From assembly GCA_022539475.1 (NCBI GenBank), contig VCMS01000080.1:62001-126000 (forward strand): a stretch of 64,000 nt of DNA, read 5' to 3'. Positions 3,546 to 30,992 of the stretch are shown here, in pieces. This stretch comes from Gracilaria domingensis (lineage: Eukaryota > Rhodophyta > Florideophyceae > Gracilariales > Gracilariaceae). The translations under genes and the position numbers were made by a program. The notes beneath the pieces were generated by a model that had not been told where the DNA came from, made no database searches, and was given only the letters and a program-made list of their open reading frames with translations. How positions within the stretch are numbered: position 1 is the first letter of the stretch; every line of letters begins with the position of its first letter.

Positions 3546-3550
3546 TCTCA

Positions 3551-6686: not shown

Positions 6687-7455
6687 TGCAGAGCAAACCC
6701 CTTTTTATTGAGAACTCTTTCGCGGTCGATTTTTAGTTTTGATGGAGACATAGTGAGCATGTACATATTTGTGTAGTGTATAGCCAGTGCTCAGTCTCTC
6801 TAGACACCCTGATAGTGGGTAAGCCACTTGTGTGGACCTGTGGAGGTGTACGCTATATTAGTTGATAGTTGCTAGTTAGTTTAATGTCTACTTGAACCTA
6901 CTTAGGTGAGGGTGACCTAGCCGTCGTGAGCACTGAGTAAACCTAACTGAGGTAGCCTTGTCAAACCAGGGGCTTGGTTCTAGTTGTTACTACCTTCGTA
7001 GGTCTACGTAGGTCTACGACCCTAGTGCGTACGGAAGTCACTACGTTCGGTTCCTGTACGAGTATCCACTCAAAATTGTCCAGGAAGTCTGGTAACTTTA
7101 GTAACAGGTTTGTCGTAACGAGGAGGCATTAGAGTGTGTTACAGATATCCACCCCTGTATAGGGTTTTCTACCGCCTTTTGTTGCGGTTGCTGCTTCCGC
7201 TTCGGGTCTCTGGTGCATACCACAGGACCCTCGGCTACCACTTGTTCTGGTTTGTTCTCCGTAGAGAGTCACCCGTTTTCACGTTCAAATCTTGGTCTTC
7301 TTAGTATTCCGCTCTGTAGGTACATCCAGTATCCACCCCGGCTTTACAACCGACTTTTGGAGGTACAGAGAGCTCTGTCGCTGGTCTACCATCTCTCAAA
7401 AGAGCGGAGCCTCCAGCAGTATGGTGGATTTTCACTCTTCCGAGTTTGCCCGACA
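6687..7455 (+). repeat. 5' LTR of Element 1
   Basis: It begins TGCAGAGCAAAC and ends TTTGCCCGACA, followed by a 3-nt gap and the primer-binding site. About 700 bases are clearly similar to 33101-33899 (for example CCAGGGGCTTGGTTCT and CCGTAGAGAGTCACCCG in both). It is also similar, in reverse complement, to the LTRs of Element 3, which fixes the element as plus strand. Confidence 0.85.
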
Positions 7456-7458
7456 AAG

Positions 7459-7476
7459 AGGTCTTCCGACTTAGAA
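7459..7476 (+). other. primer-binding site of Element 1, mutated
   Basis: AGGTCTTCCGACTTAGAA differs at two positions from the 18-mer TGGTCTCCCGACTTAGAA. That 18-mer sits three bases after the LTR in Element 3 and in the element at 61.8 kb. The primer would be a tRNA whose 3' end reads TTCTAAGTCGGGAGACCA; I cannot name the tRNA. Confidence 0.7.
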
Positions 7477-7650
7477 AATCAAGGTCTGTTTTTGAATTAC
7501 TCATTGGAGTGCGGATTCTTGAAAATTGAGATCCGCTTTCCTTCGATATCGGCTGTTTTAATACCATCTTCTGGTTTCAAAAGAGTCATTCTCTTGTCTC
7601 TTTCCACTTTTTGGAAGTTTGTTGAACGATTTCGTATACGTCTGATCGAA

Positions 7651-8816
7651 ATGATGTTTATGTGGTTTAATCCCCTCACGGATGATTTCGAGGATAGATC
7701 CACTGGTTTTACAAGTGATAGTAAGGATACGTAGTGGATTTGTAACTCTGGCTCTCCCCAGATTGATGATAAGGAGTGCCGTTCAAACTGTCAGGAAGGG
7801 TGTTCTTTTCGTCTGTATCGGAGACTGGGTTGTCCAGCAAGCCCACACCTACGGTTGGTGGAATACCGGAACCTCAGAGTACCGACATTGATAGTGTCTC
7901 CAGGTTGGAGTTATTCACCAAGGCGTTTATACTTGGTGAGGACTCCCTGTTGGAGAGTCTGCGAGATTTCAGAAGAGATATTTCCGATATCAGACTCCGA
8001 GATATCTCTTCAGACATTCACGCGTTGCGAACTGATGTTGCCTCTGTTCTTGAGTGGCTTGGTTTTCCTGAAACCTCATTTCAGGATCCTACCGTGAAGT
8101 TACACCGTTTCAAGGAACGTTTGGATACAATGGAGACAATGTCGTAATGGTTCCACCGTTTTGTCAGTTATTGATTCTCGCCGGAGGAAGACCTTCCGTT
8201 CCAATGGTCGTCAATCTCGAAAGAGATGCTTCTCTTCAGAGAGTTCAACTTCTGACACTGACTCATCCTCTTCGGGTTCGAGTTCTCAATCCATATCGGA
8301 AACTGAGCTCCGTCGCGGGAAGAGTCTCAAACGTTCGCATTCACGCCGTCGAGGTTCTCGAAAGAGATTGAATAGAGGACATACCGATTCATCTGGTCGT
8401 GATGTTTTAACCGCAAATTGGTATACCCTCCTGTGAGCTCTTCTGGCACGGACACGTCTACCTCAGATACGTCGTCATCCTCTTTGGATTTGAACTGGTA
8501 TGAAAACATGAAGAGAGAGCTTGGTCAGTTGAAATCTCCTGAAGATCATAAGGTTTCTCGGCTACGGGAAGTTCCAGAAAGGGCGGCTTTACCCACGGAG
8601 AGCGCTTCCGAATTATACGGCAAAGTTACCCACGCTGGAGTTCGACACGTTGCTCCTGAAACAAACTCCTTTGAGTATACCACGCCTTTTGTAGAGGACA
8701 CTAAATCGCAACATCTTGTGCACGTTCTTCCATACTATGAACCGACCACGGTGGTGTGTTATGCTTGTCAACGAGTTGGTCACACGACATCGCAGTGCAC
8801 GCTCTCTCCGCGGTAG
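7651..8816 (+). pseudogene. gag-like protein of Element 1, frameshifted
   Basis: This is homologous along its length to the intact 472-residue protein of Element 3. The parts lie in several frames: an N-terminus starting MMFM (7651), a coiled-coil block with RRDISDIRLRDISSDI (about 7960-8030), a Ser/Arg-rich block (8220-8390), a block with DTSSSSLDLNWYE (8480), and the zinc knuckle CYACQRVGHTTSQC (CX2CX4HX4C, about 8760). As in Element 3, no capsid-like (Retrotrans_gag) domain lies between the Ser/Arg part and the knuckle. The multiple frameshifts make it inactive. Confidence 0.8.
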
Positions 8817-9049
8817 AGGTGGACCAATGTTGGTTATTATGAGTCAAGTTCACCTGAGAACGACACCAAAAGTATTGAAATAACTGTTCCAGCTCAGACC
8901 CAAAGTGAGGTGACAGGATTCAAACCGGCAATCGGAGATTATTCGGTACCCCAGGATGGGTTTCAACCGAGCCATTTGGTTACACCTAATGAGAAAAACT
9001 GATATCGGGAGCCTCGCATTCGGAAGAGGTACCCTTTGAACAGGGTTCA

Positions 9050-10251
9050 ATGACACCTGAGGCTTCGCAGTCTCGCTCCCCAGTGAAAATTCTTTCCAGG
9101 AAGATATCTTCATTCTGATCTAATTCGCTCCCTGCGATGGGCCAACTCACTCGCCCGTGGATACGGAAGACTGATCCGAAACGTTCACATCGCGTAATGA
9201 TGCTCTCTAAGAGACATTACAAGATTCACGCCGATATGGGGTTTTCTCACGATCTCATGGTTTGTCATGTTGCTCTGTTTGATAGCGGAGCCGGTCCTAA
9301 CTGTATACTGGAGTCGTTTATTCCAGAAGAGTGTCATGAATTTATCCGTTGCGGTCACCCGACAGAAATCGCTGATGTAAATGATCATCGAATTGATACT
9401 GTAGTGCAGTGAGAGGTACCGCCCTGACGAGTGGATAGTAGTAGTTTATTTAGTTAGAGTATACACAGGGTTCAACTCGGGGTTCCACACGTGGTGGGTT
9501 GTGACAGTTGTCGTGTCGCCCTTCGGGACCCCCCCTTTATAGCTAGATAGTTTATTATTTTCGACACATGGCTACGGCCCGTGGGAGGTGCACTTATGCA
9601 TCTCCCGCCGGGCAGAGCTCACCGTGGTAAACTTCAAGCACTTCCTAGCCGATTTCCTTATCGTATAGGGTCATCTTTCCGTCACTACCGGTGCTCCACG
9701 CCAATCTCGTGGCGTTGCTAGCGTCTCTTGAGTGCTCTTTTGTCCCCGCTTGGGTGCTGCGCAATTTGTTCTTTTACCAGGGCATAGTAAGTTGTCACAG
9801 CTGAAGCTGTACTACAGATACAATAGGTACAATACCAGTAATGGTTCGTCTAGGATTAACCGCTGCTTCGGTTGAGTTTCTTGTCTGCAGAATGCTTGCT
9901 CCACCAATTGTTCTTGGTTGACACTATTTTGATCTTCACGTAGAGTCAATCAAACCCATACTTTCAGAGGGTAGAACTTGTCGACGGTTCGTCCATTCCA
10001 TTTTCTGGAAGGGCGTCGGGACGAGCAAAGAAACGTTGGGAACGTAACCTGGCGCCATTGCCTCCTGCTCAACAGTACGCGCCACCATGTCCTGGTTCAT
10101 CGAAGTTGCGAGTGGCTGCCTTTGCGCAGATATCTGCGATGTCACAAGCTTGGGATTCTGTTGCAGCAGAGGAAGGAGGTCTCGTTATGATCCACCATCT
10201 ACCATCTCTGTTGGAGAATTACGGTCTGGCCGTCGCTCGTGGTGTCGTCTA
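9050..10251 (+). pseudogene. aspartic protease region of Element 1, interrupted by a solo LTR
   Basis: The retropepsin core is recognised by ALFDSGAGPNCILES (active-site DSGA) at about 9270-9320, in the frame starting 9137. The frame is cut at 9399 by the solo LTR. Removing the LTR and one TSD copy joins ...RIDT directly to IGTIPVMVRLG in the same frame, as in the Element 3 protease. Downstream, LAPPIVLG and DLHVESIKP follow with a stop at about 9919. Further fragments to 10251 match the Element 3 protein (PAQQY, HHLPSLLEN, GLAVARG). Confidence 0.75.
9400..9816. repeat. solo LTR inserted in the Element 1 protease (TSD GATAC)
   Basis: The 417-bp sequence starts TGTAGTGCAG and ends CTGTACTACA, an inverted-terminal pair. 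It is flanked by perfect five-base duplications GATAC at 9395-9399 and 9817-9821. Excising it with one TSD restores the reading frame of the protease. It contains no coding sequence. The full element has gone, presumably by LTR-LTR recombination. Confidence 0.85.
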
Positions 10252-10311
10252 ATGTAAGCTGGTAAACCTTTTCAGGTACTTGTTTCGAACTGTTCTGATT
10301 CTCTGCAGACG

Positions 10312-11166
10312 TTGCATAACCGACAAGTGGTTGGTCAGATTACCTGGCACTCTCAAGGTGCGTTTCCCACTAATTTGTCTGTTTCCGATGTTGTCGGCTT
10401 GTCCTGTGAAGAGGAAGTCAAGGATTTGAACGCTGTGTGGAAGAGAAAACCATCGAATCATGGTTCGAATGGTACAAGTATGGAAAAGTTAGTTCCTGAA
10501 CGAGATTCAATGTTGGATAACCATCGTCGGTCTGAAAGTTTTGGTGATGAGAAGTCTAGTCCTCTTATTGAGTATGTCACCACCGTGTGGTCTTGTATGG
10601 CTGGTGTCTTGAAAAAGAAGACTCGTCTGAGTTTTGTCCCGTTTGTTCGGTCGTTATTTCATTCAAAGCGTACCACATGTTCGGATTCGCCAGTTGCGGT
10701 TGTTTCAATGAAGGACAGTGCACTCCAGTTCTGTCTGGATTGCAGGCATGTTGGTCCGAACATGTCGGGAACGTACAGTATAGAACCAGAGAAAATTGCT
10801 GTTTACCCTGACCCTGGATTAGGTCGTTTCGTCGTTCAAAACTAATCCGGGGTACATGAAACCGGTGCGCCCGAAGTTATGGCGAACAGTTCACCTGTGT
10901 TTCAGTTGAGCTCGATCGAGTCGCTCGATACCTCTAATGATTTTGGTTACATTTACTGTGTTGATTCAGATGTTGCTGTACTCAATATCCCGGTGGATCA
11001 TAGCTCTGGAAGAGATGAACCCGCTGGGTTGGTTAAGAAGAAAGAAGGAAGAGATGAACTTACCGTTGTTGGTTACTCCGCCGCTGGAGGCCTTTTCACT
11101 CGTTTCAGTGATTGGCGCGTTACCGAAGGACCAATACATGGTACTAGGATTGCTTCTATCCTCTAG
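10312..11166 (+). pseudogene. RT stub and family-specific tail of Element 1
   Basis: The stretch 10312-10845 contains SPVAVVSMKDSALQFCLD, a drifted version of the first RT block (in active elements close to SPVxxVxKKDGSxRFCVDYRxLN). After RHVG the similarity to RT ends; no palm Asp or YxDD motif follows. A further segment (10879-11166) aligns with the Element 3 tail by short shared motifs around GRDxPxGxVK. The shared truncation in two diverged copies shows that the RT loss is older than both insertions. Confidence 0.6.
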
Positions 11167-13880: not shown

Positions 13881-13892
13881 AGGAACGGGATA
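13881..13892 (+). other. polypurine tract of Element 1, mutated
   Basis: AGGAACGGGATA lies immediately before the TG of the 3' LTR and aligns with AAGAAGGGGGGTA, which precedes the 3' LTR of Element 3 in its own orientation. Two pyrimidines now interrupt it. It would prime plus-strand DNA synthesis. Confidence 0.55.
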
Positions 13893-13904
13893 TGCAGAGC
13901 AAAC

Positions 13905-14893
13905 TGTAGTGCAAAACCAGGACGGGTGAAACACGCACAGGATGTCCGACGTCCAGCTCCTTGGGGGATGGTAACTTGTTGGACGAGCCTCTATTTACAG
14001 AGGAGACCTGGGCGTAAGACCAGTAGTATACTGAGAAAATCCTACAGAGCTGAATGCAGAAAGTCCAGTATCAGGAGAATCACCAGACGAGAACGGTGCA
14101 AAAGTGAGAAATACCCGAAAAGAGGTGATCTAGACACTCCAAGGGGAGGCGTAGCTCAAGGGGCAAGGGAAAAACAGATATTCCAAAGAGGAGACGCGGA
14201 CCGCGCACACACAGGCAAAAGGCCGGACGTCGTGTAAAGCAAGAACGAACCAGGAAGTCACCCAATACTGAGGCGGAGATCTGTCCTGCAATCAGGAATT
14301 AATATTAATAATGGATGTCAATACCACACGGTATACGCAGATTCCTTAGGCGTCCCATGGAGAGTACGCGTACTTAGACCTCCTGAGCTGACTCTCCGAG
14401 CAAAGTAGTGCAGCGGTAAGGGCAGTAGCGCATAGGGCCCACTCTCGAGATGAGTCTCAAGTACCTTCTGATCTGAGTGGCAGTTCTCGAAGGAGGGGCT
14501 TGGTTGCTTTACCATCAGGTGGTGTTCAGACGCCCCTGCACCTCAAAGTACCCCAGGTGCAGGGCTGGTGCAATGATTACAGTAGTGCACACACGTACGG
14601 GATATACACGTACGCACTCCGACTGTCAGGGTGCCAAAATAAAGTCAAACTAAAAATCCCCCAAATGACTCACAAAGTGCACTAGCCATTCACCTCCACG
14701 TGTCCACGCCCAGTCAGGGGCCTTAGCCCATTCACGCTCCTCTACGGGTGCTAATTAAGATTAAATTAACCAACGGTTGAAGGCTATCATAGGGGATGCA
14801 CCTCATAACTTCAAATGCCACGTGCACTGGCGCATCGGTCGTATATGAAGAGTTTCTTCATCAAAACACCCCTAGAATTGGGTTTGCTCCACA
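13905..14893 (-). repeat. 3' LTR of Element 2
   Basis: This 989-bp sequence begins (+ strand) TGTAGTGCAAAACC and ends TTTGCTCCACA. The last ~320 bp match 32775-33095, the 5' LTR remnant. The polypurine tract lies directly right of it on the minus strand, which fixes the orientation. TSD copy CAAAC lies at 13900-13904. Confidence 0.85.
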
Positions 14894-14907
14894 TACCCCC
14901 TCCTTAG
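14894..14907 (-). other. polypurine tract of Element 2
   Basis: On the minus strand it reads CTAAGGAGGGGGTA, directly followed by the LTR start TGTGGAGC. It is nearly the same as the tract of Element 3. Confidence 0.8.
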
Positions 14908-14974
14908 TCCGGGTTCGCCGTTGTGAGGTCTTGAGGCCGAGACGGAAAGGCTTTAAATAGGCGGGCATCCCGCA

Positions 14975-16820
14975 ATGGACAGCACCGAAATCCCGGTTTC
15001 AAGCATACAGCGCACCCTCGAGGTGATAGTAACTCACGCAGCGACTACACTCCCGAGGTCTGACACATCAGCCGTCCTTATCTCTCTGTCTGGGATGAAT
15101 CCGTTTCCGACCCACCCCGTCGGGGGAGCTCCTTCTTCCTCCGGTGCTGGACAGCGAAACAACGCGCTCGCCTCTTCTGGGCAGCGGCAAACCCCGCAGT
15201 ACGTCGGTGGTTTCCTTTCGGCCCCGCTCCCTCAGAGGAACGCTCCAATTCACGCACACCCGACACAGGGTTCTTATGCCGCCGCAGTGGCGTGGAATTT
15301 GCAGCAAGTGATGTTTTTGACAGCGACCCCCGATGGGTGGATCTCCAAGGAGTCTCTGCAAGTGCGCGAATCTAAAGCAGATAGTTTGACCACTCCCGGG
15401 CTCCGTGGTTCCACCCCGATGCGGTACAGAACGATGCGGTCATGAACTCCAACGTGGAGAACGGTAAGCTCGCGGGTGGGACTCTGGTGGAACTCGTCCG
15501 ATGCCCGAACTGGCGTGGGCGTATTGCGATACCGCCGTATCTCCTGTATCGATCTCGCGGTGAATCTCATGACAGTGCCCGGGCGGGCTTGGCGACGTTA
15601 GCATATCAAGACGTGGGTCAAACTCGCAACGAGCATTTAATACTCGCCTTCTATGGGTTTGAGCCGGCGTTCTACCGAAATTACGGTGAGGTCTCATACG
15701 GAGATGCGTTGGCCGAGTTTACTGAACAGTCCTTTGGAAAAATCGCCCGTTGGGAGCCGTGCATGCTCTGCTGGGAGAGACCCATCCTCCGAGCGGAGTT
15801 CCAATATATCAGCCGATATGACACCTAGCAGGGGTTGGACCTGCGAGTCAAGTTCGAGCGCAAGACATGCATCCGCCATGGGTTTCTGGTTCCGTACTCC
15901 ACCGTGGAGATTGAACGTATTCGAAGTAACGCCAAGACTGGCCGGTATGTTCAATTGCCCCCAAGGTGGCGTCTGGTTGAGGTACCCTGTGGGTTCTTTG
16001 CTGAGTTTCCACCCTGTATCCATTACGATGGGTCCAAATTGATTTCGAACTCGCAGTCTGGGTACTGGTCATTGGTTCTCGCCAAATGGGCGGCACGCGT
16101 AGCTGCGAATATCGTTTGGGAGGTCTATGATCATCACCGTTTGTGGTATTTACCTTCTAAGTTGATCATGGCCATGCGTGGTTTGGACTTGTCGATACCC
16201 CTTGGGTCACAGAACAATGCGGATGAACTCAGGTCCCTCTTAGGAACGGTCGAGTCGATCAATTGGAACCTGGTACCGGTGGAGAATCAACCCAAGCGAC
16301 AGGGTAACGTGCGCGAGTACGACCATTCGTCTGGTAGGCAGCATCCCAATTCCGGTAACTCGTGTACTTCAACCCACAGGAGGGTAGCATGATCACCCGA
16401 CACTATGCGGAGGTGCTTTAGCGCACGCAGCGACCAGTCCCGCGTGGGCACCCCACTGGATTTGTCTTCACGGATGATTATGTGCCCGATGTGGCGTGCG
16501 ATGATCCAGTTTTGGACGTTGAGGACGTGAGTCCAGCGAGTGCGGCCCAACCAATGGTGGTAGTGCCTTGTGTAGGCGAGGATGCTACTACGGGACCAAG
16601 TGGTGAACAGACAGCCCCGGCGGGCTGGCAGGTTGCCATAACTTCAAGGGGAGAGCAGCTACCTCTTCAGTTTCACGCCCTTAAGGACGCCCTCGTGGGC
16701 TTAGGAACGACCATTCCCCCTGAGATGACGGGTCCGCACCAAATGGCGGCGTTGTACGCGAACAGCCCCCCTTCCCAGCACGGGAATACGGGCGTTGCCG
16801 GACCCTCCACTGGTGGATAA
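14975..16820 (+). pseudogene. unrecognised gene on the strand opposite to Element 2, broken
   Basis: About 610 codons of protein-like sequence run on the plus strand between the chromodomain and the 3' LTR of Element 2. A Ser/Gly/Pro-rich N-terminal part starts at ATG 14975, 22 bp after a TTTAAATAG box. A shift to the next frame falls between about 15390 and 15440. A long globular-looking part (Trp, Tyr and Cys-containing, e.g. WEPCMLCWERP and YDHHRLWYLPSKLI) follows to 16392, with one in-frame TAG at 15826-15828. Then come another frameshift near 16360, a TAG at 16419, and an acidic Pro-rich C-terminus to 16820. I recognise no family. Plant Tat-lineage Ty3/gypsy elements carry antisense ORFs in the same position, so this could be an equivalent or a captured host gene. 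Confidence 0.55.
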
Positions 16821-17179
16821 ACGGCGCTCTAACCCATGCCACAGGGTATGGTGTAGTATAACTTGAGATAGAGAAGTAAAAACCAATTAGTGGTATCTTG
16901 TGCTTCATCCTTTCCTTCCATTGGACCTTCACCACTTCCTGACCTTCCTCTTCACCCCCCTGTTCTAGGCATTCATAGCTTCATCTTCACCTTCTTCATC
17001 ACTCACAAGAGTATCTTTCTTCATCACTCATAAGTGTCATTGTAACCGTAAATCGGTAGTGTTTTTAAACTGTGAACCGGTGATTATAACTTCTAATTCT
17101 CTCTAATCGAGACTGTACCTGCGAGACCCGTGCTTGGGTTTGCCCCTTCTTCCTTTGAGAGAGCCACCTGTTGCGCGTG

Positions 17180-18291
17180 TTAGCCCACCTGGGCGTTATC
17201 CAACGTTTGCCAAAGAGACGTGCGTATCCTACGGTGATAGGAAAGAACCGGTGACCTCAGTAGGTGTTCAATTGGCTTCTCAGTGTCATCCTCGGGTGGA
17301 TAACCATACCACCAGACCCGGTACAACTGTGTCCCATCGAGAGTATAAGCGTGGCTCACAATGCGGTCCATGACAAACTCCTGTGAGTAAGTACGGGTCT
17401 CCTCGGTGTTCTGAGACTTCTCTTCCATGGGAGCACAAGATATATACCCCAAAAATGGGTCTTGGCCAGCGAAGGGGTTTCGAACTTTCCCCATCAGCGG
17501 GTTGTGTAGTGCTCTACCCGTCGTGTGGGCGGTATTCTTAACTTCGCCTTTTCGCGGCCACGGCTGCTTCTTCTTTTCCTTCTCCGTTCCCGTTTCCATG
17601 GGAGAACGCGCGCGGCGGTAAAAGTTGCGCACTGCGCTTTCTGTGCACGGGAAGGCGGGACGGCCAAGAGATCAGGCTACAGCATTGGTTGCCGGTGGTG
17701 GTGCGCGCGTGGCGCGTGCCACGGAGCACCAGTAGTAGTGAGCCTTTGCGCAACGGTCTCCAACGCACTGGCAGCTCGGATTGTTCCCTTTGGGCGGCGG
17801 CGGTGCGCGAGCTATCCAAAAATTTGGATATTTTCCGCATGTGCGCGTTCTACGCGCCACCCAATCTTCCGGGTGTAATGTGGCAAGCGCGAGCTAGCGA
17901 CGTTGAACCCCAGTGGGTACCATACTTATCATTCCCTCATGGAAGGTGTACCTTCCACCCGTCCTGTGTTCTCATTCTTCCTACTTCAGCATCCGAGAAG
18001 AGGTTATTGTGACACTTCTTCATCGTCTTCGGCTTGCTCATAGGTACCTGAAGGGTCTGCGGAGACCTGCTTTTGCTGCGAGACAGGCTCTTCGAGCGGC
18101 CTCGGTGACGGAGTATTTTGGTTCTTCTCGTTCATCTCCCTTACTGGGAGCTCCTTAACATTGCTACCGTGCTCTTGAGCGTTCTCGGTGTGCGTAAGTC
18201 GAGTCACTACAGCGGAAGTTCCGTTCGCGGTCAATGGCGACGTCTCACCAGCAATGGTGGTTCCCACTTGTGGAGAAGGCGGCGAAGTCAA
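17180..18291 (-). pseudogene. Pol tail and chromodomain of Element 2
   Basis: Reading leftwards from the Element 3 insertion point, a Ser/Thr/Pro-rich linker runs to a stop at 18004. After a gap, the frame 17632-17180 ends in a chromodomain at about 17383-17228: EFVMDRIVSH, YRVWWYGYPPEDDT, EHLL and VLSYHRR match the chromodomain fold, including the aromatic YRVWW strand. Such domains in chromovirus integrases target insertion to modified histones. The linker frame is continuous with sequence at 28734 and beyond once Element 3 and one TSD are removed, showing that the insertion cut an open frame. Confidence 0.75.
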
Positions 18292-19282
18292 TGTAGAGCA
18301 AACCCCTGCGACTAGCGCAATGGGGGAACCTCCACTAGGATGTCCGAGTCCCACTCCCTAATAGGGCAGACTCAGCAGAAGAGCCCTCTGTCCGTACTCG
18401 TGTCGAGTGACAAGCCGGGTGTAAGACCGGAGACGGTGCCTGGATATACCTACAGAGGTGAAAACAGAGAAGGAAATAGTGACCAAAAGTGGTGAGGAAA
18501 CCCAGAGAAAGGGGGAAAGAAAGGGGAAAGGAACCGAGATCCCTCCAGGCAAATCAACCCAGAGCGGAGCAAGGCCCGTGCCAACCGGCGGAAACAGGGC
18601 CGGAAGCGGAGCGACACGCCACAGTGGTGCCGAAATAAACCCAATACTGGGGTGGAAGCGATACCTAAACCAGGGGAAACAAACAGAAAGAATGTGCCTC
18701 ACAGGGACACGCCGTGTACAAAACGGAACAAACAACAAACAGAAACAACAAACAAAAGCAACAATAACAACAGAAATATACCTGGTAGGGGTTCCTAGGT
18801 GATTCTGAGGGGATAGTTATGCAAGAACCACACGTGGTTACCGGCCCGAGGGGGATGTAAACCTACGAAGGTTGCATGAACTAGAACCAAGCCTTGGGTT
18901 GAAGAAGGCGGCCTCAGTTGGCTATTTACTTAGAGGCTCAAGGGTGCGATCACCCGAGCATATATACTACTACTACAGTAACCGACAACTACGGTGCACA
19001 CCTCTCGAGGTCCGTACACGTGGACAACCCACTGTCAGGGTGCCAGATACTTCCCAGCGGGGATGGCACAAATATCTAAATGCCAGATCCACCACGTGGA
19101 CTACTACAATACCTACCAATAGGTTCCAACTTCCAATCCACCTAGCAAGGTTCCACAGAACACACAAGAATTCTCCCAATTATTGGGGCCAGAGTCCACA
19201 TCACAACACACCTTCCCAAAGGAATTCCATCTCCTCAGAGCAAGACAAATAGTGCCCCAGTACGGGATGGCATTGCTCCACA
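18292..19282 (-). repeat. 3' LTR of Element 3
   Basis: It is identical as far as read to 27739-28729. Ends are TGTAGAGCAAAC...TTGCTCCACA. It holds many short stem-loops, e.g. ACCTACGAAGGT, GGTGCGATCACC and CCCAATTATTGGG. TSD GTCAA immediately precedes it. Confidence 0.95.
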
Positions 19283-19296
19283 TACCCCCCTTCTTA
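19283..19296 (-). other. polypurine tract of Element 3
   Basis: On the minus strand it reads TAAGAAGGGGGGTA, abutting the LTR start TGTGGAGC. This fixes the element as minus strand. Confidence 0.88.
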
Positions 19297-22200
19297 GCCG
19301 AGGGTGCACACGCCCGAAAGCGGGAAGAAACCAACTTCCACCTCGTACAACCGAACGTTCGGTTGTTCACCATCACCATCTTCCGCACCGCGGCGCTTAA
19401 TTCTGTAGCACTCAACCGCGCGGCGGTGTTCTTCTTCTTATACCACTTAGGGTCTTCTCCTTCCGAGGATCGATCACGAACACGAGACCAGCTCACTCCC
19501 CAAACTCGTTGCACGACATCAGGGGCCAATCCGAATTCGGCGATTAGCGTTCCTTCCCAAGAGGGATCACCTCAACAACGTTCAAGTTCTGACACCATTA
19601 TGGATTCAAACCTGCGAAGGTTCGTATCCCTCACTGGGCACCTGTCAAAGTTCACTGCGCTCCGCGTACAACCGATTGCGGACGGTCACTACACCGGTGT
19701 CCGGTTCGTTCCTCCCAGTCATCTCCACATGAGAGCTCGTCCGATTGCGGCAGTGTCCCTTATGGCATAAGAACACTGTACCACGGTCTCCCATACGGGG
19801 GCGCAACAGACCTTCCAAGGTTAAAACAAACACAATCCAATTACTGGCGTAAGCCTCACATACCTTCCTGACAAGGCGATACCCAAACAGTAACAAAAGT
19901 AGACGGTAGGCAAACGTATCCCGACAATGGGAGCTTCCTTATGTAAAGAACTGCAGACGGAAAACGTCCAACCGATCCATCGGGTTCTTCTTACAACATC
20001 TTCTTCATCTTCCTTACAAGGACCATCTTCTCTTCTTCGAGCTTCTTCTTCGTACTTCACAAACGGTTAGTTGGGGAACATATCTTTTCTGACCTTTCGG
20101 AGACAATCTACCACACTCTGACGTAGAGTCATGGTCAATCCAGAACACTCAGTAGTATTCCTCACATCACCGCATCGCGGGCACGTTCAGAGTCACTACC
20201 GGCAACGGGCATCATCCACAGTTGGATATACAATCAACATCAACCATTACTCGCAACAATCCTGAACAGGCACCATCCCATCGGTTCAACCACCGTTTCC
20301 CAACTTTGGGCTGCTTCTCTACACACTACCCATATGGGTTCGATACCATCTTGAAAACGTTCCGGCATCGGAGACACATGAAGTCCAAAACATGTAAGCC
20401 GTAGTGACGGAGACGTGCAACCTCCCGCCACGGGCGTCCAGTCACTCAACAACAGACATGAAACAATTCCACAAACATCCGAATCCCAGACAACAACTTC
20501 TTATCCCAATAGGGCGACAATCTAACGAATGGTAACTTCCGACACTCAAGTGCGAAGTTCTCTCCACCAGACATATCCGTGGCAGCGGCGAAGCGGTCAC
20601 CAGCATTCCTAACGAAGGGCGAAAGAATAAGCTGACCACAGCGTGGTGTTTCATATTACCAGTTCTGGGATAACGCGCAAGAGCGATGCACACCGGTCAC
20701 GGTAACATTCTTTCACTGACACCGATGAACGGGTCACACAACTCACGTCGCATTCGCAACCAAATATCTTCCGAAACGGAGTCCAAGTTACCCACAAAGT
20801 TGGTATGCAATACCGCATTACCGGTTACAACGACTATACTGCGTGACACTTCACGTCCACTACCCTCATGGGGTCTCAAGTCATCTTCCTAGGACAGGAC
20901 TTCTTCAAGTATCCACCAGGATTCTTCTCTTCCAAACCCCACAACAGGGTGACACCGACAGTTTCGATCACGTCTTCTCCCAAAAAAGCGCTCTAGAATA
21001 CCAAAAACTCGGTTGCCACACAGCACACAAATCTCTAGTGTGAGCAACGAGAACTTCCAACAATCTGGATGAATTCCCATCAGGGCCACTTCACTTTCAT
21101 GTAACTTCTTCCCTTCCCAAGGTTTCCTCCGACATGAACTCTCGTAAGGGATGCATCTGTTTCAACGGCGTTAACAAGTCTCCTCAAACAGGATATATGG
21201 CTGTGAGTCATCTCAGAACTCACCATCAGTGGTTACGCACCGAAGCTTCCGGCTCGACAACAACTATCACCGGTAACCGGGTTTCCCAACGCCAACAGTG
21301 CGTCTCGGTTCAACTCTGCGCACCCGGGTTCTTCTAACTTCTTCCTGAATCAGGACTTCCAGCAACTCCGAATGGATCCATTCCGATGAGACCTTACAAC
21401 AGGGAATACATTACCATCATTGGTAATCATCACTTTCATCTATTCCCTCCGTGGGATCATTTAGACCCGGTTCTCGGTGATAGTGCAACGCGCGAGACGC
21501 TCTTGCACGTTTCAACATACTTCCACAATTAGGGTCACTTCCCTTACGGGCTTCTTCAAATCTTCACGAACTTCTATCCGAATCGGCACACATCATATCA
21601 TCCAAATCTTAAATGAGAGCATTCCGGATGATCGGACTCGAAGCAGACCAACACACTCCATTCATGGATGTCGCATGGAATACAACTCGTTGTAACTCCC
21701 ACCCGCACAGGGTACTGACCATACTTTAGGTTAACCAACAATACTCATCGTTCAACGGTATACACGGCAGCAAACCGACATTCGAGGCGTTCACTTTGTT
21801 CGCAATCCGTAAGCACGGCTCTTTTCTGTACCACACGTATTGGGTTCAGCCTTCTCCGAAGTCGGACTCAAACCAAACGCCAAAACTCACAGAAAGTGTT
21901 GTGCGTACCATACCCATTCCAACACGTTCGGAGCCCACAAAGTCTCACTTCCTCTCAAAGGAGCACTAAACCGACAACTGGTGATGTCTCACATCCTTTT
22001 CAGGAGCTTCTCCGTCGCAAAGTACCGTGTGCACGGGGAACATGCAGTCACTGCACTCCCTGCACTGTTGCGACGGTTTGCGACACGTCGGGTTGTCCCA
22101 AAATACCTGCGCCAGGTGACAGAATTGCCAAAATATCCACTATGTGGCTCATCCAGTCCATACGGCACGACAGCAATGCACCGCAGTCTCATTGGTTCTG

Positions 22201-24335
22201 CATTTCCACACGTGGCGGTGGGCAACTCATCCCGATTGGGCATATACAGTGTCAAGTGTCCATGTGCACTATCGTCCGATTCCGGAGGGTCCACGCGCCG
22301 TGGCAAGCCAAAAAATCAAATAAATTATTTTGGCACGCCGGCTAGCGCTGCCACCAGGGTGGTGCATATTATGCAGAATGCACTGGCAACGGTTTGCACT
22401 TCAAAAAATTGCATTTTTTTTTTTGACCGGCCACCGGTGCACGCGCGCGCGCGCAGCCATGCGGCATTCCAGCGGAACATCTCCCGATTACAGGGCACTT
22501 AATATACATCAGTGCTGTACTTTAGCAAACCTCATGAGGGCATAATCATCTCTCTCTCCTCCCGGAACTGGGTTAATCCGACTACGGCACATCAGCACAC
22601 CGTCGACGGTTCTTCTCTCAACAAACCTGCATTCAGGAAACTCGAACTAACTTTACACTGCGTGGCGCGTCAACTACGCCGATATTGCCCGCCTTTTTGG
22701 TACAGTAGCATCCATTTCCGACAACAGCGGAGCAGTTTGATCATGAACCGAGCACGGTAATACCAATGTGACAAAATTCTATCCCGCAGCAAGGGAATCA
22801 TTCGACAACCGTTGTTCTTCAAGCAGACCTTCATAAGGGAGCTAGTATTGACTTCTCCATTGTATGACGCGACGCCTGCATCAACGTAAACCGAATCTTC
22901 GGGATAGCGACAAGCCAGGCCGAAGCATCGGAGCGACATCTCGAACAACCCACAGGGGTTCAGAGCGGCAACCCGACAACGGTATACGGCGATGTAGACC
23001 TTCCTCAGGGTGAACGATCTGACTTTTTCTACATCCTTCTCGTACATTGGGATTACAGAAACCGACCATACGGTACATGCGCGACAAAATCCGAGGAAAC
23101 GGAGCTACGCGACCCAAACTTTCGGTACATTCATAGGAACTGCCGAGCAAATCGGAAAAGAATCTTCATGCACCCAATGGGGTTCTAGATCAACATCAAA
23201 CATTCCCGAACGCGGGCCAGCATCAAATCAAACTTCTACCGCCTGTGGTTTATCACCAATGCCATAATGCAATGGGTCCGAAACCGTATCCGGTGTAGTC
23301 AACGAGCGCGATAGGCGACCGAAACTATCCGAACTGCGGCATCCATTTCCCGAACGGGACAGAATCAAACTCAGTGATGAAATCCCCAAACAGGGTTCAA
23401 ACTTCACAAACGCAACTTCTTCCAACCAATCTGGAACGACTAGATTATCCCATAGGGCATTTCTTAGAATCGATACCACCGTGTTCGGTCAGTAAAATAC
23501 CAGCTCGTGCATACGAGAGCTTCCAGAAACTGGACCAGACGGCGACGCTGACCAATTCAAAAGCGTACTACAGCCACTCCCCCCTTCCTAGGCGGAGCCA
23601 CCACTGGTGGTGTGAACTAAACAAGAGTGAACAGAATACTCCGTTCGCGGAATCCAAACCCATAGGGTGTAACAAATCGTACATCCCGAAACCAGTACCA
23701 TTTCCAGTTGGTGATAAACCTCACAGAGGTAATTCAAACATTACCAATCAACTCGACAGAGTGAACCAAATCCATGAATGGATATTCAAGAGTAGAATAA
23801 CTGTATCCATCGGTGCAATCCTTTCAAAGGAGACCGATAACAAAGATGAAACTCCAAGTAGACCGAATGTTCTCGGGGATATCCAAGAATGGACATTAAC
23901 ATCATGTGACATGTGTAGTAACGAAGAAAACCAGAAAAACTGGGAACCACTCAGGTAGAGTACGAAAGCTATTCCCGAGTAGGGTTCGACAACGAACTCA
24001 ACAGAGGTAGCATAAAATAATATTCCATGGTTTGGAGACTTCTCAAATGAGACGAAACAGTCTCCCACGATGGGAAAAAACCGCACTTACGGGGAAACCT
24101 ACCCCGGTAGTCGGGTGAAAAAACCACCATGGTAACCACGACAAAAGATATTCACAGAACTCAAGTAGAGTGTAACACGAAAAAGCACAAGCATGTGAGC
24201 AGAATCACTTCTCCCTCAACTGGGCACAGTACTTCCATGAAGAAATAACCGTTCCGCGGTGAGTAAAGAGTGACTCACTCAGAAATCACGAAACAAGCAA
24301 ACAACCAAAACAATCCTTACATTAGGAAACAGTCC
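19297..24335 (-). other. non-coding 3' part of Element 3
   Basis: About 5 kb contains no RT palm, RNase H, integrase or chromodomain motif on either strand. Short frames exist (for example +21840-22502 and -22670-23047) but match no family, and I could not confirm their conservation in Element 1. Short inverted repeats with 3-5 nt loops are frequent, for example CCACCACTGGTGG, GTTCGACAACGAAC and TCCCACGATGGGA. A GC dinucleotide run lies at about 22441-22455 and a T run at about 22415-22425. Confidence 0.6.
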
Positions 24336-24884
24336 TCAACCCATATGGGTGTTCAAAGAAATAGTGTCCTTCCAGGAATCAGATGAAGCAAAACCCTGCG
24401 CAGGGTGACAATCCTCATTAACGCCGGAACCTGAATTGAGCGTAACGCTTTCGCCTCCCATGCGGGCTTCACTACTCACCTCGGATGGCAAGGGTTTAAA
24501 CTTGACCATCCCTGGTGACGCATCTCTTCCTTCATGAGGCTCAACAGTAGTGGCAACCACATTTCCATTGGATACAACCGCTTCAACGGTACCATCACAT
24601 CCTTCTGGATTACACACCGAATCAATCGGGTTCAGATACGAAAGAACCGAAAATGTCTCCCGAGTCTCCGGTACCAAAGAATCTTCCACCAAAACCTGGT
24701 TATCAACGACAACATAAACGAACCCAGCTTCAGAGTACACACCGTTTTTCATCGGCTTCATGCCATAGATTCCAACGGCATTCAGACCAACATGGCGGTA
24801 GTCTAGAACAGAACTGGAGAGACCTATCCTTCTTAGGAACCACCAAAACTGGTGCCACCGAACGTTCGGTAGGAGTCGAATCAA
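24336..24884 (-). pseudogene. RT stub plus family-specific tail of Element 3
   Basis: The frame opens with the RT block LDYRHVGLNAVGIYGMKPM, which continues the end of the protease frame (VVPKKDRSLQFC). One extra T near 24807 separates the two frames; Element 1 lacks it. After KPM the sequence no longer resembles RT: about 140 residues rich in Val, Glu and Ser follow, ending at 24336. No catalytic Asp motif exists. The tail is shared with Element 1 (GRDxPxGxVK region). Confidence 0.6.
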
Positions 24885-26091
24885 AAAGAGACCGTACGAA
24901 CGGGACGAAAGTGAAGCGCTTCCTTCCTTTCAGGGCATCAACCACAGTAGACCACAGAGTGGTGAGCACCTCAAGTAGGGAACCAGATTTCACAACATCA
25001 GAACTTTCAAACCCACGGCGGGTATCCAACTTCAAATCCTGTTTAGGGACCGACTTCTCCATACGTGGAACAACTGAGTCATGCCGCGACGGTTTCAAAT
25101 CCCAAAGGGCGTTCAACTTCTCAGCTTCGAGCTTATCAGACAAGCCGACAACATCTGAAACACCCAAATCAGTGGCAAACATACTCAAAGGGTGCGCAGT
25201 AGTTTGACCAACCACTTGCTGGTGCTGTAGCGTCTGCGCGGAACGCGAGAAGTTAGCAACAAGAACCTGAAAAGGTTTCCCACCTTCACAAAGGGTAATG
25301 CCTCGAGCAACAGCGAGACCATGTTTCTCCAAAAGAGACGGTAAGTGGTGCACAATTGCAAGTCCATTTCTCTCAGTTGAGACAGTAACCCAAGTTTGGG
25401 ACATCGGAGGTATCCGGACAAACTCGGAAACGCGTACCTTCGAGGAATCAAGACCTTGAGATTCATACTGCTGAGCTGGTGGCAGCGGAGCCGCGTTACG
25501 TGCGGAGCGCTTCTTTGCCCGTTCCCACGGTTTTCCAGCAAATGGAACAGACGAGCCATCTACCAGCTCCACCCTCGAAAGTCTGGGTTTTATAGACTCC
25601 ACATGGAGGTCGCAAAAATCACAACCGAGCACAATCGGGGCTGCAAGCGTCTTGCACACAACAAAGTTACCCGAAACAGCGGTCATTCCTAAACGAACCA
25701 TAATTGGTATCATGCCCATCGTAACAATTGGGCGATCATTTGCATCAGCGATTTCCATCAGGGGACCGTAACCGATAAGTGCATGACACTCCTGCGGAAG
25801 GAACGAATCCAGTATACAGTTGGAACCGGCTCCGGTATCCAATAGAGCGACATGATGAACCATGAGATGGTCAGAGAAGCCGAAGTCGGCGTGAACCTTG
25901 TAACTTCTCTTCGAGAGCATCATAACACGTTCCGGACGCTTCGGATTGACCTTCCGTTTCCACGGCCGAACGAGTTGACCCATCTCAGGGTGCGAATCCG
26001 CAAGGGATAAAGATATCTTCCTCGAAAGAATCTTCATCGGGGAGCGAGGCGGCAAAGCCTCAGGTGGCCATGACCCCTGTTCACAGGTCAC
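24730..26091 (-). CDS. retroviral-type aspartic protease protein of Element 3
   Basis: An open frame of about 453 residues. The active site is ALLDTGAGSNCILDS near residue 85, followed by the second conserved block APIVLGCDFC and then DLHVESIKP, a complete retropepsin domain. The N-terminal segment (PWKRKVNPKRPERVMMLSKRSYKVHADFG) is shared with the Element 1 and Element 2 proteases. The C-terminal ~200 residues are family-specific and end in the RT block VVPKKDRSLQFC, where a one-base insertion breaks the frame. The frame lies -1 to gag and is open upstream through the gag stop, so expression as a Gag-Pro fusion by frameshifting is likely. No ATG precedes the domain in frame. The protease would mature Gag. 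Confidence 0.8.
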   Translation of the reverse strand: MTCEQGSWPPEALPPRSPMKILSRKISLSLADSHPEMGQLVRPWKRKVNPKRPERVMMLSKRSYKVHADFGFSDHLMVHHVALLDTGAGSNCILDSFLPQECHALIGYGPLMEIADANDRPIVTMGMIPIMVRLGMTAVSGNFVVCKTLAAPIVLGCDFCDLHVESIKPRLSRVELVDGSSVPFAGKPWERAKKRSARNAAPLPPAQQYESQGLDSSKVRVSEFVRIPPMSQTWVTVSTERNGLAIVHHLPSLLEKHGLAVARGITLCEGGKPFQVLVANFSRSAQTLQHQQVVGQTTAHPLSMFATDLGVSDVVGLSDKLEAEKLNALWDLKPSRHDSVVPRMEKSVPKQDLKLDTRRGFESSDVVKSGSLLEVLTTLWSTVVDALKGRKRFTFVPFVRSLFDSTPTERSVAPVLVVPKKDRSLQFCSRLPPCWSECRWNLWHEADEKRCVL

Positions 26092-26117
26092 CTCTCCCGA
26101 ATGGGAGGCTCCCGAAA

Positions 26118-26127
26118 TCAGTTTTTC
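26118..26127 (-). other. candidate -1 ribosomal frameshift site at the gag/protease junction
   Basis: The minus-strand mRNA reads G AAA AAC UGA, with the zero-frame codons AAA AAC directly before the gag stop. The protease frame is the -1 frame and is open across the site (GAA AAA CUG AUU). It resembles the A AAA AAC slippery heptamer except for the first base. I have not established a downstream pseudoknot. Confidence 0.5.
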
Positions 26128-27536
26128 GGAACAGTCGTCACCGAATGACTCGGTTTAGACCCATCCGGGGGAACTGAAAAGTCCCCGGTCTTGGGAAGGA
26201 ATTCCTCCACCACGTCTTGGTTCTGAACCGTAACGGTGTTTCCACTATTTCTAAAATCGTTTCGGTTCATCACTGCGACTTCATAAGATGCTCTCGACAC
26301 ACGAGCAATGCCCTCAGGTGGGAGTGATTCATAATTCCCAATAATGGTCGACCAATCCCGAAGTGGGAACGTGCACTGCGGTGCCGGATGCCCAAACTGG
26401 TAACATCGATAACAAAGCACCGTGGCCGGCTCGCCAACATGACGAGCGTGCAAAGCAAGTTGCGGCGACGAGTACCTGACCTCAGGTTTTCTGTACTCAA
26501 CTGAGTTCGCTCCAGGAGCAACCTGTTGAAACCCAGCATGGGTACCTTCACCGTTCAAAGCGGGATCATTCTGCATCGTCAACGCTGACCTCTGCGGAAG
26601 TTCCGGCTCCGGAGAAGACCCAAAATCTTGGTGAGAATACAACTCATCTATCTCGCGCTGCGAGTGTTCAAACCAATTCAAATCCAAGGAGGATGACGAC
26701 ACATCTGACGTAGACGTCTCAGTGTCAGACGTGCTCATATGAGAGTGAACCGTCTTGCGGTGTCCAGAACTAAAACCAGATGACTTGGTACGCTTTCCTT
26801 TCAATCTCTTTCGAGAACTTCTACCGTGTGAACGGGAACGCTTGCGACTCTTCCGAGAAGGAAGTTCAGTATCCGATGAGTCGGAAGATGAACTCGAATC
26901 CGATGTGGATAAGTCAGTGTCAATTGATGAACTATCCGAAGAGGACAATCTCCTTCGAGAGCGGCGGCGCAAACCGAAATTACGGCTTCCTTTCCGAGAA
27001 CAGAAACCATCAACAACCGTAGCATCGGGGAGATCCTTCCTGGCCTTCAAAGGCTTCTCCAATGCATCCAAACGTTCACCAATTTGGTTCAACTTAACAG
27101 TAAACTCCTCATCTGAGGCTTCAGAAAAACCAATCATCTCGATAATCGAGGAAACGTCGAGTCGCAACTCGCGAATATCTGCCGACACGTCTCGGAGTTT
27201 GATATCAGAAATATCTCGTCTGAGATTCGACAGCATTTCCAACTGGACTCGCTGACCAAGGACCAAATCTTTGGTAGCAGACTCCATCCTGGAGAACAAC
27301 AAAGCGTCCGTATCACGGCAGTCAGATGTTCGGTGAACCACAGGCGTGGGATCAACAGACCACCCGACTTCGGGAACCGACAAAACGGACAATACTTTCC
27401 GAGAATCGGATGAAACTTCGCCAACACCAATCCCTTGGGGAACAGTGTGCAAATCCATACGCGGAGAATCGTCAGCATCTCCCGAATGGGTCGAACCGTC
27501 ATCGGTGTTGTCTGATGACAACATGAACATCATCAT
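26118..27536 (-). CDS. gag-like nucleocapsid protein of Element 3, apparently without a capsid domain
   Basis: An intact frame of 472 residues. Order: an acidic N-terminus, a heptad-like coiled coil near residues 95-170 (RRDISDIKLRDVSADIRELRLDV), Arg/Ser-rich blocks near 185-260 (RRRSRRRLSSSDSSS, RKSRKRSRSHGRSSRKR), a second Ser/Thr-rich block, and one zinc knuckle CYRCYQFGHPAPQC near residue 380. The coiled-coil and Ser region align with the gag N-terminus of the element at 61.8 kb (VRDVSSDVRVLRSDV). That gag then has a Retrotrans_gag capsid-like domain (MSEAQAY...) which has no counterpart here. The protein would bind RNA and could pair with another element's Gag through the coiled coil; this is inference. 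Confidence 0.8.
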   Translation of the reverse strand: MMMFMLSSDNTDDGSTHSGDADDSPRMDLHTVPQGIGVGEVSSDSRKVLSVLSVPEVGWSVDPTPVVHRTSDCRDTDALLFSRMESATKDLVLGQRVQLEMLSNLRRDISDIKLRDVSADIRELRLDVSSIIEMIGFSEASDEEFTVKLNQIGERLDALEKPLKARKDLPDATVVDGFCSRKGSRNFGLRRRSRRRLSSSDSSSIDTDLSTSDSSSSSDSSDTELPSRKSRKRSRSHGRSSRKRLKGKRTKSSGFSSGHRKTVHSHMSTSDTETSTSDVSSSSLDLNWFEHSQREIDELYSHQDFGSSPEPELPQRSALTMQNDPALNGEGTHAGFQQVAPGANSVEYRKPEVRYSSPQLALHARHVGEPATVLCYRCYQFGHPAPQCTFPLRDWSTIIGNYESLPPEGIARVSRASYEVAVMNRNDFRNSGNTVTVQNQDVVEEFLPKTGDFSVPPDGSKPSHSVTTVPKN

Positions 27537-27717
27537 GATGAACCGAAAGTTCGGTGCGAACGAAAACGCTCACCACAACTTCCGAAAAGCGGAGAACAAC
27601 GAGAAAATGATTCAACCGAACCGAAAAACGGTATCAATCGAAACTAATCTCCTAAAAGGGGAACCCAATCTCAAAGATTCCAAACTCGAAAGAGTACTTC
27701 ACAATTGATACAATCCC

Positions 27718-27735
27718 TTCTAAGTCGGGAGACCA
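27718..27735 (-). other. primer-binding site of Element 3
   Basis: On the minus strand TGGTCTCCCGACTTAGAA starts three bases after the 5' LTR end. The identical 18-mer lies at 62676-62693 with the same three-base gap. It begins with TGG, the complement of a tRNA CCA end. Confidence 0.85.
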
Positions 27736-27738
27736 AAA

Positions 27739-28729: not shown

Positions 28730-28734
28730 GTCAA

Positions 28735-28976
28735 CGAAACCAAACCGGTATTACCAGCGGTAGCAGCACCGTCCTTCCCTTCCTTAGGTGTTGCCGCCTG
28801 GGGTGTTGAAACCACGTCGGGTGGGGGGTGACGGTTTGAACTCGCATAGAGTCCTCGGACTGGGCCTTAGGTAGGCGATCTGACCCAGTGAGTACAGTCT
28901 TCGATATGTCCGTTAGTCGGATAAACCGCGTTTCGGGTGAGAAAGTACCGCCCGACGCGACAATTCCGAGGGTTGA
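28735..28976 (-). pseudogene. Pol tail of Element 2 left of the insertion site
   Basis: A Pro/Ala/Thr-rich linker frame reads through this part and continues at 18291 after removal of Element 3. A stop at 28977-28979 separates it from the integrase C-terminus. No domain is visible. Confidence 0.45.
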
Positions 28977-30855: not shown

Positions 30856-30992
30856 AGAACCACCCTAAAGGGTTAATCTGGATTGAAAGTAACGATTCTT
30901 CTAGCAACTGAAAGTTGTTTTTCGGCAAAGAGAGTAGACAGGGGTTCTACGATGTGCAATCCTACCTGTTTGGAAGAGGGAGGCACCCATAC

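What the first reader, a model, noticed from the sequence alone, without database searches (positions are those of the whole stretch)
7651..27536. A non-autonomous LTR family with a gag-like protein and protease but no capsid domain, RT core or integrase
Elements 1 and 3 are diverged copies of one family. In both, the gag-like protein runs from coiled coil through Ser/Arg blocks straight to the zinc knuckle. The Retrotrans_gag domain that the relatives at 32.3 and 63.8 kb possess is missing. In both, RT is cut after its first block and no RNase H or integrase follows. Because the older and younger copies share the truncation, it is a stable design, not decay. Element 3 moved recently, so it must use other elements' enzymes and perhaps co-assemble via the coiled coil. 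Known non-autonomous classes (TRIM, LARD, Morgane, BARE-2) lose different parts.
Basis: partly seen in the sequence, partly recalled or inferred. Interest (0 to 1): 0.8.

Follow-up and report, generated by a model that had tools for sequence, protein, structure and literature searches.

The report
Capsid-less passenger LTR retrotransposon family
A long-lived family of jumping genes in a 78-Mb eukaryotic genome has lost the shell-building part and the copying enzymes from its own proteins, yet keeps a trimmed coat protein and protease under selection while, most likely, moving in particles built by a complete relative.

Summary
Element 3 (18,292-28,729, minus strand) is a complete 10,438-bp LTR element: identical 991-bp LTRs, TSD TTGAC, PBS, PPT. 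ORF1 runs from coiled coil through Ser/Arg blocks to zinc knuckle; alignment with an autonomous chromovirus of the same genome shows the capsid segment missing. ORF2 keeps protease and an RT stub. Capsid, RT core, RNase H and integrase were found inside 0 of 22 fetched copies (some not whole). Corrections: close copies have a 605-aa ORF2 frame that element 3's copy leaves; a second family (B, about 8 kb) shares the design. A and B form one clade (100/100), sister to the autonomous element among 92 rows. Between subfamilies their ORFs are under purifying selection (protease dN/dS 0.13-0.30); most closest-copy pairs show none. The PBS and the exact frameshift-site motif (29 of 38 loci) are shared with the autonomous element. 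Perfect TSDs in 14 of 15 LTR pairs tested. So: a stable design, not decay. Gag-bearing passengers are known (Athila, Quinta, wheat Fatima); in nine literature searches I found no genomic family with a capsid-less Gag and a selected protease. Adaptor-like co-assembly with helper Gag is the favoured, untested mechanism.

The parts
18292..28729 (-). Element 3, family A, complete 10,438-bp non-autonomous LTR element
   Evidence: LTR pair 100% identical, TSD
27739..28729 (-). 5' LTR (991 bp)
18292..19282 (-). 3' LTR (991 bp), identical to the 5' LTR
28730..28734 (-). target-site duplication TTGAC, 5' side
18287..18291 (-). target-site duplication TTGAC, 3' side
27720..27735 (-). primer binding site TGGTCTCCCGACTTAG; family B and the autonomous element have the same apart from one variable base
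27718..27935 (-). end of the LTR plus PBS: a common RNA fold can be drawn for families A, B and the autonomous element (covariation evidence mixed)
26118..27536 (-). ORF1, 472 aa, Gag-like without capsid
27036..27320 (-). ORF1 residues 73-167: predicted helices/coiled coil, homologous to the N-terminal part of the autonomous Gag
26666..26744 (-). place in ORF1 (about residues 265-291) where the autonomous Gag has its capsid segment
26373..26414 (-). zinc knuckle CYRCYQFGHPAPQC (residues 375-388)
26118..26127 (-). GAAAAACTGA at the ORF1 stop, candidate -1 frameshift site
   Evidence: exact motif in 29 of 38 loci, both autonomous ones included
24730..26091 (-). ORF2 as listed (453 aa): protease and RT stub; the family frame starts at 26,154 and is 605 aa in close copies
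25828..25839 (-). protease active-site motif DTGA
   Evidence: meaning of the motif recalled
24725..24864 (-). RT stub (family residues about 431-476)
19283..24335 (-). 5.05-kb 3' tail without match to pol; stands where RT-RNase H-integrase would be
19283..19295 (-). polypurine tract AAGAAGGGGGGTA
6694..11043 (+). Element 1: older family A copy (LTR part, leader, broken ORF1 and ORF2 remnants); its outer ends were not fixed
28735..33095 (-). Element 2, 5' part: old autonomous relative (gag, protease, RT, integrase remnants) into which element 3 is inserted
14574..18286 (-). Element 2, 3' part (chromodomain 17,482-17,183; 3' LTR begins near 14,893, inferred)
62834..64000 (+). Gag start of a copy of the putative helper chromovirus (100% identical to L020 over 389 aa, cut by the window end)

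Best explanation
Element 3 belongs to an old lineage of non-autonomous Ty3/gypsy elements (families A and B, one clade) that split from an autonomous chromovirus and lost the Gag capsid segment and the RT-RNase H-integrase-chromodomain part of Pol. The lineage still encodes a trimmed Gag (coiled coil, Ser/Arg region, zinc knuckle) and, if the conserved motif at the ORF1 stop works as a frameshift site, a Gag-protease fusion; between subfamilies both ORFs are kept by selection. Most likely it is reverse transcribed and integrated by the enzymes of an autonomous chromovirus of this genome, inside that helper's particles. The favoured step is that the trimmed Gag works as an adaptor: its coiled coil joins the matching part of helper Gag, its zinc knuckle binds its own RNA, and its protease joins in maturation. 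Shown here: anatomy, clade, selection between subfamilies, shared PBS and frameshift motif, recent insertion, mosaic history. Inferred: protein expression, frameshifting, co-assembly, adaptor role, identity of the helper.
For: Protease in 22 of 22 fetched copies; capsid, RT core, RNase H, integrase, chromodomain inside the element on its strand in 0 of 22. Alignments with helper Gag and Pol. A+B one clade 100/100, sister to the autonomous element 100/97, among 92 rows, and a shared gap in the RT fingers. dN/dS of ORF2 between subfamilies 0.33-0.42 and of ORF1 0.61 (0.48-0.76) or 0.39 (A-B); 0 of 1000 neutral runs stay open for these pairs. Protease part 0.13-0.30. Exact frameshift motif in 29 of 38 loci incl. 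both autonomous ones. PBS shared. TSDs in 14 of 15 LTR pairs plus element 3; LTR identities 97.5-100%. Mosaic element 3. 45 helper-type rows, frames up to 1,900 aa, in the same genome.
Against: Among close family A copies most pairs give dN/dS 0.57-1.02; only ORF2 pairs with C290 are low (0.34-0.39), and for close pairs a frame stays open by chance in 18-104 of 1000 runs. ORF1 regions taken singly have intervals reaching 1 in 16 of 24 tests. Copy C415 has DAG instead of DTG in the protease. The helper shares with family B only about the last 180 bp of the LTR (73-78%), and with element 3 no blastn match at all there. R-U5 fold: percentage paired and covariation score beat all shuffles, but pairs with a change on both sides (4 against 3.3) and further pair types (9 against 12.8) do not. 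Folding after the frameshift motif is not beyond shuffles. Other autonomous families of this genome were not sampled in the tree. No RNA, protein or particle data.
Confidence: 0.55

Rival explanations
1. The proteins are irrelevant: the elements are pure RNA parasites that carry cis signals, and the ORFs are decaying leftovers.
For: Most closest-copy pairs look near neutral; 4 of 13 near-full-length ORF1 copies at 88% or more carry a stop.
Against: Between-subfamily dN/dS 0.33-0.42 for ORF2 and 0.39-0.61 for ORF1, with 0 of 1000 neutral runs staying open, in lineages that share the losses.
Confidence: 0.12
2. The trimmed Gag is a competitor or dominant-negative modulator of helper particles, as described for a Ty1 Gag fragment, kept because it tunes helper activity or favours its own RNA.
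For: Keeps coiled coil and zinc knuckle without the shell segment; capsid-less Gag isoforms in sunflower were discussed in this sense (PMC7730604, passages).
Against: Does not explain the retained, selected protease and the frameshift motif.
Confidence: 0.2
3. Cooperation: the family supplies protease (and RNA-binding Gag) in trans to the helper, as suggested for wheat Fatima subfamilies.
For: The protease and post-protease parts are the best conserved; wheat RLC_famc1.4/1.5 with gag and protease ORFs were interpreted so (PMC6097303, passage).
Against: The helper has its own protease region in one frame with RT, so it should need none.
Confidence: 0.15
4. Independent recent internal deletions of autonomous copies.
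For: Internal deletions are common in retroelements (general knowledge).
Against: One clade 100/100 with a long stem, shared gaps, no match of the tails to pol.
Confidence: 0.04

Closest known systems
Pol-less Athila families of Arabidopsis (PMC2410132: abstract, section on selection, passages)
   Same: Non-autonomous LTR families that keep ORFs under purifying selection and recombine among families
   Different: They keep Gag or Gag+Env; the word protease does not occur in the text; no loss of capsid in what I read
RLG_Quinta / RLG_Cereba pair of wheat (PMC11302176: abstract and passages)
   Same: Autonomous and non-autonomous partners sharing PBS and LTR ends; own Gag ORF; mosaic history
   Different: Quinta is said to contribute Gag for particles plus a domain of unknown function; here Gag lacks capsid and a protease is kept
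Wheat Fatima RLC_famc1.4/1.5 (PMC6097303: passage)
   Same: Subfamilies with gag and protease ORFs, RT and integrase from another subfamily
   Different: Named RLC (Copia); capsid status not given in the passage
Tyran/Varan short GAG isoforms of sunflower (PMC7730604: passages)
   Same: Gag with nucleocapsid motif but no capsid domain
   Different: Splice isoforms of elements, judged by the authors probably unable to form particles; not a genomic family; no protease mentioned in the passages
TR-GAG, TRIM, LARD, BARE-2 (search listings, a reference title, and recall)
   Same: Non-autonomous LTR elements needing a partner
   Different: As recalled: Gag only, no ORFs, or a disabled Gag with the rest retained; none is a capsid-less Gag plus protease

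Membership tests
Ty3/gypsy chromovirus (ancestry) | LTR element with 5-bp TSD, TG..CA ends, PBS and PPT | tested here: met
Ty3/gypsy chromovirus (ancestry) | Gag N-terminus, nucleocapsid and protease homologous to a chromodomain-bearing autonomous element | tested here: met
   tree
Ty3/gypsy chromovirus (autonomous member) | Capsid, RT, RNase H, integrase, chromodomain | tested here: not met
   inside 0 of 22 fetched copies
Non-autonomous LTR passenger with own Gag (Athila, Quinta type) | Lacks RT and integrase but moved recently | tested here: met
Non-autonomous LTR passenger with own Gag (Athila, Quinta type) | Identifiable autonomous partner sharing PBS and LTR ends | tested here: inconclusive
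   PBS shared; LTR start TGTAGTGC is that of the autonomous element in family B and copy C56 but not in element 3 (TGTGGAGC); other autonomous families not excluded
Non-autonomous LTR passenger with own Gag (Athila, Quinta type) | Gag able to build particles (capsid present) | tested here: not met
TR-GAG (definition recalled) | Short element with a Gag domain only | tested here: not met
   10.4 kb, capsid absent, protease present
LARD (definition recalled) | Large internal region without coding capacity | tested here: not met
   two ORFs under selection between subfamilies
BARE-2 type (definition recalled) | Gag not produced, pol domains retained | tested here: not met
   opposite pattern
Gag-protease expression by -1 frameshift | Frameshifting occurs at GAAAAACTGA | not testable with these tools
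   motif conserved; folding of the following bases not beyond shuffles (z -0.27 to -1.65 in 5 sequences)

The most novel reading that the evidence does not exclude
The A/B lineage is a satellite of a chromovirus whose capsid-less Gag-protease is a dedicated adaptor: it has no shell of its own but inserts, via a coiled coil shared with helper Gag, into the helper's particle and recruits its own RNA, the retrotransposon counterpart of satellites that hijack a helper's capsid.
Probability: 0.35. Interest if true: 0.8.

Novelty: new variant of a known kind. Interest (0 to 1): 0.6.

Why it matters
Capsid is the part of Gag held to be essential for particle assembly. A lineage that lost it, split into at least two families and still keeps the rest of Gag plus protease under selection makes a clean test possible: what do coiled coil, nucleocapsid and protease do for an element that cannot build a shell? 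It would separate RNA recruitment from assembly in LTR retrotransposons and show how long-term parasites of retrotransposons persist.

Tried and rejected
Decay of an ordinary element: rejected. A hidden capsid in ORF1: not found by profile; the structure model is too poor to decide (mean pLDDT 42.2), and the single-sequence model of the element 2 capsid piece was poor too (48.4), so no fold search was run. Pfam as proof that the relatives have Retrotrans_gag: failed, and the genome-wide Retrotrans_gag search was not matched up with the helper copies. PDB sequence searches gave nothing useful. Homologues of ORF1 and ORF2 in the 5.8-billion-protein set: none at E<=0.001 (only the 7,989 and 7,995 candidates sharing most words, of similar length, were scored). 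As control, RT to integrase of the helper Pol finds 4,681 of 7,976; this shows that the set holds such elements, not that it would hold truncated ones. The tail as structured RNA: 5-bp hairpins exceed shuffles (62 against 23.4), but control stretches do so too, less strongly (54 against 34.0 and 68 against 42.5; helper pol 55 against 29.1), and with 6-bp arms the C56 tail equals its shuffles; compensatory changes do not exceed random placement (4 against 2.5, sd 1.6), though unchanged pairs do (174 against 150, sd 10.5): no claim made. LTR sharing between copy C139 and the helper was at first sight a neighbouring solo LTR. Literature searches.
Full report
What was checked. Element 3 is delimited by 991-bp LTRs that are 100% identical (18,292-19,282 and 27,739-28,729), TG..CA ends, TSD TTGAC, a PBS and a polypurine tract. 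It sits inside an older autonomous element on the same strand (element 2: remnants of gag, protease, RT and integrase on one side, chromodomain on the other). Element 1 is an old family A copy with broken frames and a solo-LTR-like insertion. A copy of the putative helper starts near the right end of the window (gag 62,834-64,000, 100% over 389 aa).

Anatomy of the proteins. The same genome holds an autonomous chromovirus (L020, L017): a 670-aa Gag frame, and a 1,899-aa Pol frame with RVT_1, two RNase H models, Integrase_H2C2, rve and Chromo. Aligned with it, ORF1 of element 3 matches the N-terminal coiled-coil part and the nucleocapsid with zinc knuckle and lacks the segment between. That segment of the autonomous Gag (2 sequences) matches a profile of Retrotrans_gag regions cut from database proteins, most of them from one arachnid (probability 75%, P 2.5e-5). 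ORF1 (6 sequences) has no match (probability 0.2%); against the autonomous segment only the linker after it aligns (Retrotrans_gag places of the seed proteins). Pfam's own model does not reach the autonomous pieces at E<=10. AlphaFold2 of ORF1 gives helices at 73-167 with moderate confidence and pLDDT below 50 nearly everywhere else.

ORF2 and the missing enzymes. ORF2 relatives at 96-97% identity have open frames of 605 aa; element 3's 453-aa ORF follows them to about residue 429-449 and then leaves the frame. ORF2 holds the protease (DTGA), a conserved post-protease region, a short RT stub and a variable C-terminal part. In 22 loci with A/B elements (element 3, element 1, L013-L016, L019, L021-L035), tblastn with pieces of the autonomous proteins at E<=0.001 finds the protease in 22, the nucleocapsid in 19 and the Gag N-terminus in 14. 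Capsid, RT core, RNase H, integrase and chromodomain are found inside an A/B element on its own strand in 0 of 22. Stray hits: RT in L021, capsid in L022 and L032, and chromodomain in L030 lie outside the LTRs; a chromodomain hit in L016 is on the other strand, and the bounds of that element are not known. L019 ends with its contig, L014 lacks the end of its 3' LTR, and L016, L023, L033 and element 1 were not delimited at both ends. Of 93 rows, 48 are of A/B type, with open frames of at most 683 aa, and 45 of autonomous type, with frames up to 1,900 aa; these are lower bounds, and contigs may include duplicated haplotypes.

Two families, one lineage. Family A (element 3 type) has 13 near-full-length ORF1 copies at 88% or more, element 3 included, 9 of them without a stop. 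Family B (C139: 7,996 bp, 848-bp LTR) has open frames of 440 and 675 aa. In a maximum-likelihood tree of the protease region with 92 rows (9 A/B, 2 autonomous copies from this genome, 81 of the 120 database proteins listed, those with a long enough match), A+B is one clade (100/100), sister to the autonomous element (100/97). A and B also share a gap in the RT fingers. The losses therefore most likely predate the A/B split.

Selection. Between subfamilies dN/dS of ORF2 is 0.33 (0.26-0.42, C56-C121), 0.36 (0.29-0.46, C56-C415), 0.38 (0.31-0.48, C121-C415), 0.37 (0.29-0.46, C56-B139) and 0.42 (0.34-0.53, B139-B128). ORF1 gives 0.61 (0.48-0.76, C56-C415) and 0.39 (0.26-0.58, C56-B139). Neutral simulation to the same divergence keeps the frame open in 0 of 1000 runs for each of these. 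By region the protease has 0.13-0.30, the post-protease part 0.18-0.23, the RT stub 0.17-0.53, and the C-terminal part 0.61-0.72 with intervals near or over 1. Against this: among family A1 copies most pairs give 0.57-1.02, apart from near-identical ones and ORF2 pairs with C290 (0.34-0.39). C56-C290 is 0.57 (0.32-1.05) for ORF1 and 0.37 (0.23-0.64) for ORF2; C415-C53 is 0.67 (0.44-1.02) and 0.73 (0.48-1.20); for these close pairs 18-104 of 1000 neutral runs stay open. ORF1 regions taken singly reach 1 in 16 of 24 tests. Only copies with readable frames were used (11 for ORF1, 12 for ORF2); broken copies were left out. One of the eight aligned proteins (C415) has DAG for DTG.

Cis signals. The exact motif GAAAAACTGA at the ORF1 stop occurs in 29 of 38 loci, both autonomous ones included (L001, L009-L011 left out as stretches of element 3 itself, L002 and L012 as repeats of L013 and L019). 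The bases after it do not fold better than shuffles (5 sequences). The PBS TGGTCTCCCGAC.TAGAA is shared by A, B and the autonomous element. The last part of the LTR is 73-78% identical between family B and the autonomous element over about 180-200 bp; element 3 has no blastn match there and can be compared only in the multiple alignment. A common fold for 12 such sequences has 96.8% of cells paired (shuffles 92.1) and 21 cells with changes on both sides (shuffles 9.1), and falls to 59% or less when slid. But pairs with a change on both sides (4 against 3.3) and further pair types (9 against 12.8) do not exceed shuffles, and the changes follow clades. So the fold is plausible, not proven.

Activity. 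14 of 15 LTR pairs tested have a perfect 5-bp TSD; the script took the best offset near the LTR ends; L024 gave none by its rule; L014, L016, L019, L023, L033 and element 1 were not tested. LTR identities are 97.5-100%. Element 3 is a mosaic: positions about 950-4,860 are 95-100% like C56, while the tail after that is nearer to C121. This is the trace expected of template switching between co-packaged RNAs (established for retroelements; inference here).

Mechanism. Shown: loss of the capsid segment and the copying enzymes; retained coiled coil, nucleocapsid and protease, selected between subfamilies; retained PBS and frameshift motif; recent insertion. Inferred: movement by an autonomous chromovirus of this genome; the trimmed Gag as an adaptor that co-assembles with helper Gag through the shared N-terminal part and brings in its own RNA. 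A competitor role and a cooperative supply of protease remain possible.

Comparison. Pol-less Athila families keep ORFs under purifying selection and recombine (PMC2410132: abstract, one section, passages). Quinta is a Gag-bearing partner of the autonomous Cereba with shared PBS and LTR ends (PMC11302176: abstract, passages). Wheat Fatima subfamilies 1.4 and 1.5 contain gag and protease ORFs (PMC6097303: passage). Capsid-less Gag with a nucleocapsid motif is described for splice isoforms in sunflower; the authors think them probably unable to form particles and mention a dominant-negative role as in Ty1 (PMC7730604: passages). Oomycete Chronos elements carry a chromodomain and an added RNase H and are distinct from chromoviruses (PMC5348765: passages). 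In the nine searches listed in Tried and rejected I found no genomic family with a capsid-less Gag and a selected protease; most subscription papers are not in that library, and most hits were seen as listings only.

Noticed in passing
window 9400-9816: A 417-bp solo-LTR-like insert (TGTAGTGC...TACTACA) with TSD GATAC splits the ORF2 remnant of element 1; its ends resemble those of family B and the helper.
   Followed up: partly
window 14975-16392 (+ strand): ORFs of 156 and 185 aa run antisense to element 2 between its chromodomain and 3' LTR, recalling the antisense ORFs of plant Retand elements (PMC11963269, passages).
   Followed up: no
window 19283-24335; tails of C121 and C56: Family A tails hold 2.6-3 times more short-loop hairpins with 5-bp arms than shuffles; other stretches show a smaller excess (1.6-2.2 times) and no covariation was seen.
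   Followed up: partly
G000:C332 (L004, L005): Family A copies lie 7,862 bp apart in the same orientation with a third partial one at the contig end, as in a tandem array sharing LTRs.
   Followed up: no
L016:5351-7303: A 651-aa open frame without Pfam match at E<=0.1 lies downstream of the C415 family A ORFs.
   Followed up: no
L022, L015, L027, L032: Several family B copies lie in or beside sequence of autonomous elements, as element 3 lies in element 2.
   Followed up: partly
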